Shown: positions 2,027-51,724 of the stretch, piece after piece | Numbering within the stretch: the first letter of the stretch is position 1 | Layout of the letters: the number at the start of each line of letters is the position of its first letter | Source of the DNA: Tabrizicola oligotrophica | GTDB taxonomy: Bacteria; Pseudomonadota; Alphaproteobacteria; Rhodobacterales; Rhodobacteraceae | Direction: 5' to 3' | Length of the DNA: 64,000 nt | Assembly: GCF_011008935.1 (NCBI RefSeq) | Contig: NZ_JAAIVJ010000001.1 | Location: forward strand, 558,001-622,000 | Made by a program: the position numbers and the translations under genes | Notes under the pieces: model-generated | Database searches by the model: none | What the model saw: the letters and a program-made list of their open reading frames with translations, nothing else | Told to the model about the DNA's origin: nothing

Positions 2027-3586
2027 TTACTTGAAGTAGATGTTGAACTTCGCCCGGATCGCCCGGTCAATCTCCGGGTCCACCACGCAACCCGCCTTCG
2101 CCAGGATCTCGTTCTTGCGCGCAATCGCCCCGTCCAAGAGCAAGGGCTTGCCCGCCTCGTTCCACTCCTTCGGGCTCATCCGGTTGCCGACCTTGGGATA
2201 GACATATTCGGTCTGCATCAGCTTCAGCGTCTGCTCGGAACCGAGATAGTGCCCCGGCCCGCCCAGACAGACCTCCTTCATCGCCTCAAGCGAGGTCGAA
2301 TCCGGCGTCACGTCGATGCCCCGCACCAGCCGCATGGTCTGGCCCAGCAGGTCATCGCCCAGCACAAGGCTTTCCAGACAGAAGCCCAGCAGCGAGGCAT
2401 GCATCCCCACCGCCTCATAGCACATGTTGAGGCCCGCCAGCCCGGCCAGCGCATTGGTGATGCCCTGCTCCCAACCCGCCTGCATGTCGGGCAGTTTCGA
2501 ATCGGAAATCCCGCTCGCCGCGCCGCCCGGCAGGTCATAGAAGCGGTGCATCTGCGCACAGCCCGCCGTCAGCAGCGCCTGCTCGGCCGAGCCGCCAGAC
2601 ATCGCCCCGGTCCGCAGATCGCTGACGAAGGGCCAGGTGCCAAAGATCGCCGGCGCCCCCTTCCTGATGGCGTTGACATAGACCACCCCCGCCAGACATT
2701 CGGCCACCGCCTGAACGATGGTCAGCGCAATCGGCGCCGGCGCCGTCGCCCCCGCCTGCCCCGCGCTCAAGAGAAGCATCGGCATCCCCCGGCGGATGCA
2801 ATCCTCCATGGTGATGCAGCTTTCCTCGGCAAACTTCATCGGCGGCACGACGAAACAATTGGAATTGCTGACGAAAGGCCGCTCCAGCCACTTCTCCTCG
2901 CCGCCCGCCACCATATGCAGCATGTCGAAACAGTCGGCGACATGGGAGGGGTCCGAGAAAGAGGTGCCCACATGCTTCCTGGTGCCGGCAAGGCAACCAT
3001 AGAGCGTGTTCAGGTCCATCTCCTTGTTGTCCATCACATCGCGGCAAACCATGGTGCGTTGATAAAAGTGAATGTTATCAAGGTTATCCACCAGCCGCGC
3101 CGCATCATAAAGGTCCTGCGCCGTCGACTCGCGATAGTCGAGCGTGATCGGATCGACGATATGCACCGCTGCGCCCGCCGTGCCGTAATGCACATTTGTC
3201 CCACTCAGATGCAGGTCATGCTTCGGATCGCGGGCATGCAGCGTGATGCCCCGCGCCGCCACCGCCAGCATGTCCTCGACCAGCGCGCGCGGAAAGCGCA
3301 TCCGCCCGTCGCTGCCGTAAACCGCTCCGGCGGCGGACATGATCTCGACCCCCGATTTCGGCGCCTGGCTCAGGCCGATCTCCTCCAGCGCATCCAGCGC
3401 CGCCTCATGGATCTGCTTCACCCCGGCTTCGCTCAGCGGCTTGTACTGCCCGCCGGCCATGCCGCCGCGCACCGGGCGCACATCATCGGCCAAGGGCGCC
3501 GCCCGCAGCGCCACCCTTGCCTGCCGTCCCCCCGATCGCCCTGCCCGCGCCCGTGCCGGTTCGCAAACGTCGCCAATCTCGCTCAT
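2027..3586 (-). CDS. Trimethylamine methyltransferase (MttB) family protein, non-pyrrolysine type
   Basis: A 519-residue MttB-family (COG5598) methyltransferase with characteristic stretches such as HYGTAGAAVHIVDP and PSHVADCFDMLHMVAGGEE and a C-terminal half rich in GG(A/P) motifs. The frame is read without an in-frame amber codon, so it is not the pyrrolysine-containing TMA enzyme. Characterised non-Pyl members transfer a methyl group from glycine betaine, proline betaine or carnitine to a corrinoid protein. No corrinoid protein is seen here; the neighbours are GcvT-fused demethylating oxidoreductases. The ATG at 3586 has AAAGGG in front; an upstream in-frame ATG at 3601 lies inside the intergenic repeat and lacks a good ribosome site. 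The natural substrate is unknown. Confidence 0.88.
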   Translation of the reverse strand: MSEIGDVCEPARARAGRSGGRQARVALRAAPLADDVRPVRGGMAGGQYKPLSEAGVKQIHEAALDALEEIGLSQAPKSGVEIMSAAGAVYGSDGRMRFPRALVEDMLAVAARGITLHARDPKHDLHLSGTNVHYGTAGAAVHIVDPITLDYRESTAQDLYDAARLVDNLDNIHFYQRTMVCRDVMDNKEMDLNTLYGCLAGTRKHVGTSFSDPSHVADCFDMLHMVAGGEEKWLERPFVSNSNCFVVPPMKFAEESCITMEDCIRRGMPMLLLSAGQAGATAPAPIALTIVQAVAECLAGVVYVNAIRKGAPAIFGTWPFVSDLRTGAMSGGSAEQALLTAGCAQMHRFYDLPGGAASGISDSKLPDMQAGWEQGITNALAGLAGLNMCYEAVGMHASLLGFCLESLVLGDDLLGQTMRLVRGIDVTPDSTSLEAMKEVCLGGPGHYLGSEQTLKLMQTEYVYPKVGNRMSPKEWNEAGKPLLLDGAIARKNEILAKAGCVVDPEIDRAIRAKFNIYFK

Positions 3587-50586: not shown

Positions 50587-51480
50587 ATGGACTGGGACAA
50601 GCTGCGGATCTTTCATTCGGTGGCCGAAAAGGGCAGCCTCACCCATGCGGGCGACGTGCTGCACCTCAGCCAGTCCGCTGTCAGCCGCCAGATCCGCGCG
50701 CTGGAGGAAAGCCTGAATGTCACGCTGTTTCACCGCCATGCCCGCGGGCTGATCCTGACCGAACAGGGTGAGCTTCTGTTTGATGCCACGCAGGCCATGG
50801 TCAAGCGGCTTGATGCAACCGCCGCGCGCATCCGCGATTCGGAAGATGAGGTTTTCGGCGAGTTGCGGGTAACGACGACGACCGGCTTTGGCACGCTCTG
50901 GCTGGCCCCGCGCCTGCCGACGCTGTTCAAGCAATATCCCAGCCTGAAGATCGACCTGATGCTCGAGGAGCGGGTGCTGGATCTGCCGATGCGCGAGGCC
51001 GACGTGGCGATCCGCATGAAGGAACCCTCGCAGGCCGACCTGATCCGCAAGCGGCTGATGAACATCAAGATGCGGCTTTACGCGACACCGGAATATCTGG
51101 CCGAACATGGCACGCCGACGACAATGGAGGATTTCGCCCATCACCGGCTGATCTGCCAGCACGCCGGCACCGCACAGGTGGCCGCCGGCGCCATGCTGGT
51201 GGCCGAACTGATGAGCCATGACATCCCGTCAACCCTGACGGTGAACAACTATTTCGGCGTGCTGCAAGGCGTGCTGAACCACCTTGGCATCGGGGTCTTG
51301 CCCGACTACATCACCGAAGACTTCCCGCATCTGGTGCGGGTACTGCCCGAGACCGAAAGCAGCGAAGTGCCGGTGTTTCTCGCCTATCCCGAAGAGTTGC
51401 GGCACTCCAAGCGCGTCGCGGCCTTCCGCGAGTTCGTGACCGAAGAGATCTTCAACTATCGCAAGCGGCATCAAACATGA
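50587..51480 (+). CDS. LysR-family transcriptional regulator
   Basis: A 297-residue protein with the LysR N-terminal HTH (KLRIFHSVAEKGSLTHAGDV, then LSQSAVSRQIRALEESL) and a substrate-binding C-terminal domain. The ATG at 50587 follows GGAGG. Divergent from murI across 186 bp. A candidate small RNA gene follows downstream on the same strand. Target genes and effector are unknown. Confidence 0.9.
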   Translation: MDWDKLRIFHSVAEKGSLTHAGDVLHLSQSAVSRQIRALEESLNVTLFHRHARGLILTEQGELLFDATQAMVKRLDATAARIRDSEDEVFGELRVTTTTGFGTLWLAPRLPTLFKQYPSLKIDLMLEERVLDLPMREADVAIRMKEPSQADLIRKRLMNIKMRLYATPEYLAEHGTPTTMEDFAHHRLICQHAGTAQVAAGAMLVAELMSHDIPSTLTVNNYFGVLQGVLNHLGIGVLPDYITEDFPHLVRVLPETESSEVPVFLAYPEELRHSKRVAAFREFVTEEIFNYRKRHQT

Positions 51481-51609
51481 CTCTGGCTTGCCTGTTTTTC
51501 GTGCCGTTTCAGAAGCTTGGCCCGAAAAAGCCGCAAACCCTGCCCCTGCGCCATGCTTGCCATGCACCCAGCGCATAGCGGCAATGCTGCGATTGCAGCA
51601 TGATAAGTC

Positions 51610-51638
51610 TTGAGATGCCCATTTTGTGCGCATAGATA
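51610..51638 (+). promoter_or_regulatory. Sigma-70-type promoter of the candidate small RNA
   Basis: TTGAGA (51610-51615), 17-bp spacer, TAGATA (51633-51638). No open frame with homology begins downstream; a terminator follows about 80 nt later. Confidence 0.65.
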
Positions 51639-51644
51639 CGTCCT

Positions 51645-51724
51645 CGAAGCAGCAATCGAGTTCGCTCTTGCTGGTTCAACCTCCCTGTTGGACTTGGCCG
51701 AGCGTAAAGCTCGGCCTTTTTTTT
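51645..51724 (+). ncRNA. Candidate small RNA with CU-rich anti-Shine-Dalgarno loop
   Basis: An RNA of about 80 nt is expected from the promoter at 51610 to the terminator T-tract. It folds into three local stems: CTCGA/TCGAG (51643-51660), GTTCAAC (51674-51680) / GTTGGAC (51687-51693) with one G-U pair and the loop CTCCCT, and the terminator stem. A CCTCC-type loop exposed by a small hairpin is the hallmark of alphaproteobacterial small RNAs such as the CcsR group of Rhodobacter and the cuckoo RNAs of rhizobia. Similarity is by architecture only; expression is not shown. Confidence 0.65.
51696..51724 (+). terminator. Rho-independent terminator of the candidate small RNA
   Basis: GGCCGAGC (51696-51703), loop GTAAA, GCTCGGCC (51709-51716), then eight T. 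One of the strongest terminators in the window and not next to any protein gene end (216 bp after lysR). Confidence 0.9.

What the first reader, a model, noticed from the sequence alone, without database searches (positions are those of the whole stretch)
51610..51724. Candidate small RNA with anti-SD loop between lysR and purL
A sigma-70 promoter (TTGAGA-17 bp-TAGATA), three hairpins, one with loop CTCCCT on a 7-bp stem, and a strong terminator with eight T define an RNA of about 80 nt with no coding frame. CCTCC-loop hairpins define the CcsR and cuckoo small RNAs of alphaproteobacteria, which can pair with Shine-Dalgarno sequences.
Basis: partly seen in the sequence, partly recalled or inferred. 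Interest (0 to 1): 0.7.

Follow-up and report, generated by a model that had tools for sequence, protein, structure and literature searches.

The report
SorY stress RNA beside its LsrB-type regulator
The stretch encodes a real, roughly 80-letter regulatory RNA, the local version of the known oxidative-stress RNA SorY, and the comparisons made here suggest that the neighbouring LysR gene is the LsrB/VtlR regulator that switches on the related AbcR RNAs in rhizobia and Brucella, which would join two stress circuits that the papers searched here treat separately.

Summary
The feature is real. It is the syntenic ortholog of Rhodobacter sphaeroides SorY: same LysR gene upstream, same purL downstream, same promoter spacing, anti-Shine-Dalgarno core and terminator. 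Rfam labels it SorX, which is wrong by synteny: the genome's own SorX lies elsewhere, beside an OmpR-like gene. Two details fail: the promoter is RpoH-type, not sigma-70, and the 7-bp CTCCCT hairpin is a local accident (94 of 100 orthologs have only 2 contiguous pairs). The conserved design is a covarying 5' hairpin, an ACCUCCCUGUUGGAC linker and a terminator.

Beyond the finding: the adjacent LysR is, by reciprocal best hit, closest solved structure, synteny and regulon, the ortholog of LsrB/VtlR. A conserved box close to the published LsrB box sits 20-21 bp upstream of the sorY promoter; it is in 99 of 106 lysR-linked loci but 2 of 43 others. In this genome the box also precedes three DUF1127 genes, as in Brucella's VtlR regulon (AbcR2 plus three DUF1127 genes). 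In other families trxB-lysR is often followed by a related anti-SD RNA. A 2025 paper calls LsrB unique to Rhizobiales; this argues otherwise. Regulation and targets in this organism are inferred, not shown.

The parts
51562..51587 (+). Predicted LsrB/VtlR-type operator: ATGC-N7-GCAT (T-N11-A) followed by GCAT-N3-GG-N3-TGC
   Evidence: Conserved in 97 of 106 lysR-linked loci at 10 or more of 14 positions of its downstream half, usually 20-21 bp upstream of the -35; 26-bp form at 13 or more of 16 positions in 99 of 106 lysR-linked loci vs 2 of 43 others; resembles published LsrB box GCAT-N3-TG-N3-T (PMC8844928). Binding not shown.
51609..51637 (+). RpoH-type promoter, CTTGAG-N16-CATAGAT
   Evidence: Ortholog consensus CTTGAA-N16-CCTAAAT, spacer 16 in 101 of 106; published S. 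meliloti RpoH1 consensus CTTGAA-N16-CCTATAT (PMC8844928)
51644..51724 (+). SorY ortholog small RNA (predicted primary transcript, about 80 nt; 3' end within the T-run)
   Evidence: Start placed by alignment to the mapped R. sphaeroides TSS 1,632,642 (PMC6238624); Rfam hits; synteny
51646..51677 (+). 5' hairpin (covarying stem)
   Evidence: Fold; compensatory changes; own arms fold better than chimeras in 99 of 100 orthologs
51679..51693 (+). Anti-Shine-Dalgarno linker ACCTCCCTGTTGGAC
   Evidence: CCTCCCTGTTGGA present downstream of 29 of 30 LysR orthologs chosen without the motif
51696..51724 (+). Intrinsic terminator with T-run
   Evidence: covarying pairs
50587..51480 (+). lysR gene, LsrB/VtlR-type regulator (ORF open from 50554; homology starts at Met 50587)
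   Evidence: Pfam HTH_1 and LysR_substrate; best solved structure 9HH1, Agrobacterium LsrB, 241.8 bits vs 106 for next; reciprocal best hit 267.6 vs 97 bits
51968..54127 (+). purL, downstream syntenic neighbour
   Evidence: NCBIfam PurL equivalog

Best explanation
51644-51724 encodes the ortholog of SorY. [quoted passage not shown] The adjacent LysR protein, an LsrB/VtlR ortholog, most likely binds the box at 51562-51587 and also controls transcription, activation being the likelier sign. The RNA probably binds Hfq and uses its CCUCCC linker to cover Shine-Dalgarno sequences of transporter mRNAs (takP is the known R. sphaeroides target and an ortholog is present), lowering substrate import under stress. 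Supported here by comparison: orthology, promoter type, conserved box, RNA architecture, identity of the LysR, shared box upstream of DUF1127 genes. Inferred: LysR binding and its sign, Hfq binding, target repression in this organism.
For: R. sphaeroides SorY (RF02651, 115 bits, at the published TSS) has the same LysR (83.5%) and PurL (89%) neighbours (PMC6238624). 29 of 30 LysR orthologs are followed by CCTCCCTGTTGGA. RpoH-type promoter (PMC8844928; RpoH-family control of SorY in PMC8307010). Box in 99 of 106 lysR-linked vs 2 of 43 other motif loci; in 61 family genomes the strict box gives 59 sites, the reversed pattern none. In this genome three of the seven box sites other than sorY lie upstream of DUF1127 genes on the same strand, as in VtlR's published regulon (PMC12595884). 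LysR matches LsrB structure 9HH1 and is a reciprocal best hit. takP ortholog present.
Against: RF02651's cut-off (111 bits) is not reached (42.1). LsrB's conserved redox cysteines C144 and C273 are absent in this LysR, which has one cysteine, so the sensed signal may differ. At one position the box has mostly G where the published consensus has T. Box and promoter consensus were read from orthologs collected with the RNA motif, although the lysR-anchored sample agrees. Duplex energies do not single out takP among this genome's transporter genes. No transcript, binding or target data for this organism.
Confidence: 0.82

Rival explanations
1. It is a second SorX, the 3' UTR-derived sRNA, as Rfam's threshold hit says.
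For: SorX model 49.8 bits, over its cut-off of 46.6.
Against: A better SorX (63.1 bits) lies at C3:5877 beside an OmpR-like response regulator, the published SorX setting (PMC6238624). The window RNA has its own promoter and SorY's neighbours.
Confidence: 0.03
2. SorY ortholog under RpoH control alone; the upstream box serves something else, such as lysR mRNA 3' processing or an unrelated protein.
For: The box lies in the lysR 3' flank; RpoHI/RpoHII control of SorY is in the literature (PMC8307010).
Against: Near-fixed 20-21 bp spacing to the promoter; the box stays with sorY in a genome whose best LysR hit lies about 174 kb away; the same box lies upstream of DUF1127 genes.
Confidence: 0.13
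3. It is a CcsR or cuckoo-family RNA.
For: Shared CCUCCC core; weak mmgR/suhB match (27.5 bits, cut-off 41).
Against: CcsR RNAs are four RNAs processed from a transcript that begins with ccaF1, a DUF1127 gene (PMC10253847); here a single RNA with its own promoter after lysR.
Confidence: 0.02

Closest known systems
SorY of Rhodobacter sphaeroides (RF02651)
   Same: Same neighbours lysR and purL, same promoter spacing and predicted start, identical ACCTCCCTGTTGGACTT core, terminator; takP ortholog present
   Different: 5' hairpin sequence diverged; 42 bits against a cut-off of 111; the published work read here does not mention LysR control
LsrB/VtlR-AbcR circuit (alpha-r15 sRNAs) of Rhizobiaceae and Brucellaceae
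   Same: Ortholog of the LysR beside an anti-SD sRNA; similar operator; RpoH-type promoter as for S. meliloti AbcR2; box also upstream of DUF1127 genes
   Different: One RNA instead of two, shorter, one anti-SD core and no anti-SD 5' loop; LsrB-type box and RpoH promoter combined on one promoter; no trxB upstream; LysR lacks C144/C273
SorX (RF02784)
   Same: Shared CCUCCCUGUUGGA core and terminator; passes the Rfam cut-off
   Different: [quoted passage not shown] that locus is elsewhere in this genome
CcsR1-4 / cuckoo RNAs
   Different: CcsR1-4 are tandem and processed from a DUF1127 gene transcript

Membership tests
SorY | Reaches Rfam RF02651 gathering score (111 bits) | tested here: not met
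   42.1 bits; only 1 of 198 genomes of the family reaches it, so the model is narrow. Not a member of RF02651 as drawn; orthology is claimed on synteny.
SorY | Same locus as R. sphaeroides SorY (lysR-sRNA-purL) | tested here: met
SorY | Own RpoH-type promoter and unprocessed primary transcript | tested here: inconclusive
   Promoter pattern met; transcript not testable here
SorY | Lowers takP mRNA | not testable with these tools
   takP ortholog present; pairing possible but not discriminating
SorX | Reaches RF02784 gathering score | tested here: met
   49.8 vs 46.6 bits
SorX | Lies in the 3' UTR of an OmpR-like gene | tested here: not met
   Upstream gene is lysR; the SorX-type locus is at C3:5877
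CcsR / cuckoo | Tandem RNAs co-transcribed with a DUF1127 gene | tested here: not met
   Single RNA after lysR
alpha-r15 / AbcR | Adjacent to the LsrB/VtlR gene and carrying its binding box | tested here: met
   (box by sequence only; binding not tested)
alpha-r15 / AbcR | 5' hairpin loop exposing an anti-SD motif plus a second motif between hairpins | tested here: not met
   Only one anti-SD core; the 5' loop carries none. Positional and regulatory counterpart, not filed as a member.
LsrB/VtlR | Reciprocal best match and closest solved structure | tested here: met
LsrB/VtlR | Conserved redox cysteines C144 and C273 | tested here: not met
   Absent; single Cys201, present in 23 of 30 family orthologs. 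C144 and C273 are conserved among A. tumefaciens, S. meliloti and B. abortus (PMC11975290). So the regulator is called an ortholog, not a redox-switch LsrB.

The most novel reading that the evidence does not exclude
One ancestral circuit underlies two separately studied stress RNAs: an LsrB/VtlR-type LysR regulator with an adjacent anti-SD sRNA and DUF1127 genes. In Rhizobiaceae and Brucellaceae it is LsrB/VtlR-AbcR; in Rhodobacteraceae it is this LysR with SorY, where the LsrB-type box and an RpoH promoter (split between AbcR1 and AbcR2 in S. meliloti) meet on one promoter and the regulator lacks the known thiol switch. Related lysR-linked anti-SD RNAs in many other alphaproteobacterial families belong to the same group.
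Probability: 0.6. Interest if true: 0.75.

Novelty: new variant of a known kind. Interest (0 to 1): 0.6.

Why it matters
SorY is studied as an RpoH-driven photo-oxidative stress RNA and AbcR as an LsrB/VtlR-driven metabolic and virulence RNA; no paper in the held library mentions both SorY and AbcR1. If they are outputs of the same regulator, SorY work in R. sphaeroides, a harmless laboratory phototroph, becomes a direct model for the VtlR/LsrB circuit. It also contradicts the published statement that LsrB is unique to Rhizobiales (PMC11975290), predicts an untested regulator for SorY, and shows that Rfam can place a SorY-type RNA under SorX.

Tried and rejected
Sigma-70 promoter (none found). 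SorX identity (rejected on synteny). CcsR/cuckoo identity (locus structure). The 7-bp CTCCCT hairpin as a conserved feature. Ranking targets by duplex energy among DctP-type genes: in R. sphaeroides takP scored best at its presumed start (-27.1), in this genome three transporters were about equal, so not informative. RNAalifold on the MAFFT alignment recovers only part of the 5' stem because its arms are misaligned; the chimera test was used instead. Rfam gave no alpha-r15 match in the lysR-flanking loci of other families, so homology with AbcR proper was not shown by sequence. The original SorY paper is not held; the SorX paper was not requested.

Full report
Observation. The RNA folds much better than shuffles (z = -4.45). 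Rfam gives SorX above its cut-off at 51665-51722 and SorY below its cut-off over the whole RNA 51647-51724.

Identity. The two Rfam answers were separated by synteny. R. sphaeroides SorY has a mapped start at 1,632,642 (PMC6238624). The genome with SorY at 1,632,645-1,632,727 (115 bits, the only one of 198 over the cut-off) has there the same LysR (83.5% identity) and PurL (89%) as the window. The window's own genome has a better SorX (63.1 bits) on another contig beside an OmpR-like response regulator, the published SorX setting. The window RNA is therefore the SorY ortholog, labelled SorX by Rfam. By alignment its start is near 51644 and it is about 80 nt.

Conservation without circularity. 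Starting from the LysR protein instead of the RNA motif, 29 of the 30 best orthologs fetched from 61 family genomes carry CCTCCCTGTTGGA 125-232 bp after the aligned end of lysR. The exception (G034, L177) has its SorY elsewhere on the same contig.

Anatomy. Across 100 orthologs the 5' hairpin is rebuilt by compensating changes: own arms fold better than chimeric arms in 99 of 100 (-13.8 vs -8.3 kcal/mol on average), and RNAalifold lists double-sided changes in its inner stem and in the terminator. Individual folds leave on average 3.8 of the six CCUCCC bases unpaired, so the core is mostly but not wholly exposed in these predictions.

Promoter. In 106 lysR-linked loci the consensus is CTTGAA-N16-CCTAAAT, spacer 16 in 101. 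This fits the S. meliloti RpoH1 consensus CTTGAA-N16-CCTATAT quoted in PMC8844928, and RpoH-family control of SorY is reported (PMC8307010).

An upstream operator. A conserved noncoding block lies usually 20-21 bp above the -35: ATGC-N7-GCAT-A-N-C-N-G-N-N-W-TGC. The published LsrB/VtlR box is GCAT-N3-TG-N3-T (PMC8844928). At 13 or more of 16 positions it is present in 99 of 106 lysR-linked loci and in 2 of 43 motif loci without lysR; one of these two is the SorY of G034, whose best LysR hit is about 174 kb away. In 61 family genomes the strict pattern occurs 59 times and the reversed pattern never. In this genome eight sites were found at one mismatch or fewer: sorY itself, and three that lie within about 300 bp upstream, same strand, of DUF1127 genes at C15:29815, C6:179328 and C1:622512. 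One of the others is near an efp/DUF6280 region (C1:731980, L170); the remaining three were not assigned. In relatives the box again precedes sorY or DUF1127 genes, including one DUF1127 gene in R. sphaeroides (L218).

The regulator. The closest solved structure is 9HH1 (241.8 bits, next 106), which PMC11975290 identifies as Agrobacterium LsrB. A LysR from another alphaproteobacterial family finds the window LysR at 267.6 bits, next 97. In 26 best-hit loci from other families, 23 have an upstream ORF with a thioredoxin-reductase CATCDG-type motif; nine of nine tested are TrxB equivalogs. trxB-vtlR-abcR is the published order (PMC7486931). In 16 of 26 the LysR is followed by CCTCCCTG plus a T-run terminator, several matching the SorX model below its cut-off, and the ATGC-N7-GCAT type dyad is present in 12 of 26 against 0 for the reversed pattern. 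VtlR in Brucella controls AbcR2 and three DUF1127 genes (PMC12595884), the same kind of regulon. One difference is firm: LsrB's conserved cysteines C144 and C273 are missing, so that thiol switch is not shared.

Literature. PMC11975290 states that LsrB is unique to Rhizobiales, from a tree of a few chosen proteins. Here a close relative (E at most 1e-80) was found in 58 of 61 genomes of this family. The alpha-r15 family is described for Rhizobiaceae and Brucellaceae (PMC8844928, PMC3712013). No held paper has both SorY and AbcR1. Two held papers have SorY with LysR and R. sphaeroides; by title and abstract neither is about this regulation, and they were not read in full.

Mechanism and limits. 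By analogy with SorY-takP (PMC6238624, PMC8307010) and AbcR, the RNA should mask Shine-Dalgarno sequences of transporter mRNAs with Hfq. takP has an ortholog here (592.9 bits to 2HZK). Expression, LysR binding, its sign, Hfq binding and targets were not tested in this organism. Common descent of SorY and AbcR is suggested by position, operator and a similar 3' module but was not shown by alignment to genuine AbcR sequences.

Noticed in passing
G000:C1:622362-622622 (about 360-620 bp beyond the window's right end): LsrB-type box upstream of a DUF1127 small-protein gene, about 13 kb from sorY.
   Followed up: partly
L170 (G000:C1:731980); relatives L222, L239: The box also recurs near efp and a DUF6280 small-protein gene; a possible third conserved target.
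   Followed up: partly
G000:C3:4487-4561 and C3:5877-5954: Two SorX-like RNAs about 1.4 kb apart, the stronger beside an OmpR-like gene.
   Followed up: partly
window 2410-2509, - strand: Rfam PYLIS_3 (pyrrolysine insertion, mttB) hit; probably a coding-sequence match to an MttB-type gene, not checked.
   Followed up: no
L206-L212, L245-L259: A near-invariant ACGTCTCCCAGACGTGAAGCCTCCCTG stretch in lysR-linked RNAs of many alphaproteobacterial families; those that match Rfam at all do so only below the cut-offs (SorX, in one case each also SorY or mmgR).
   Followed up: partly
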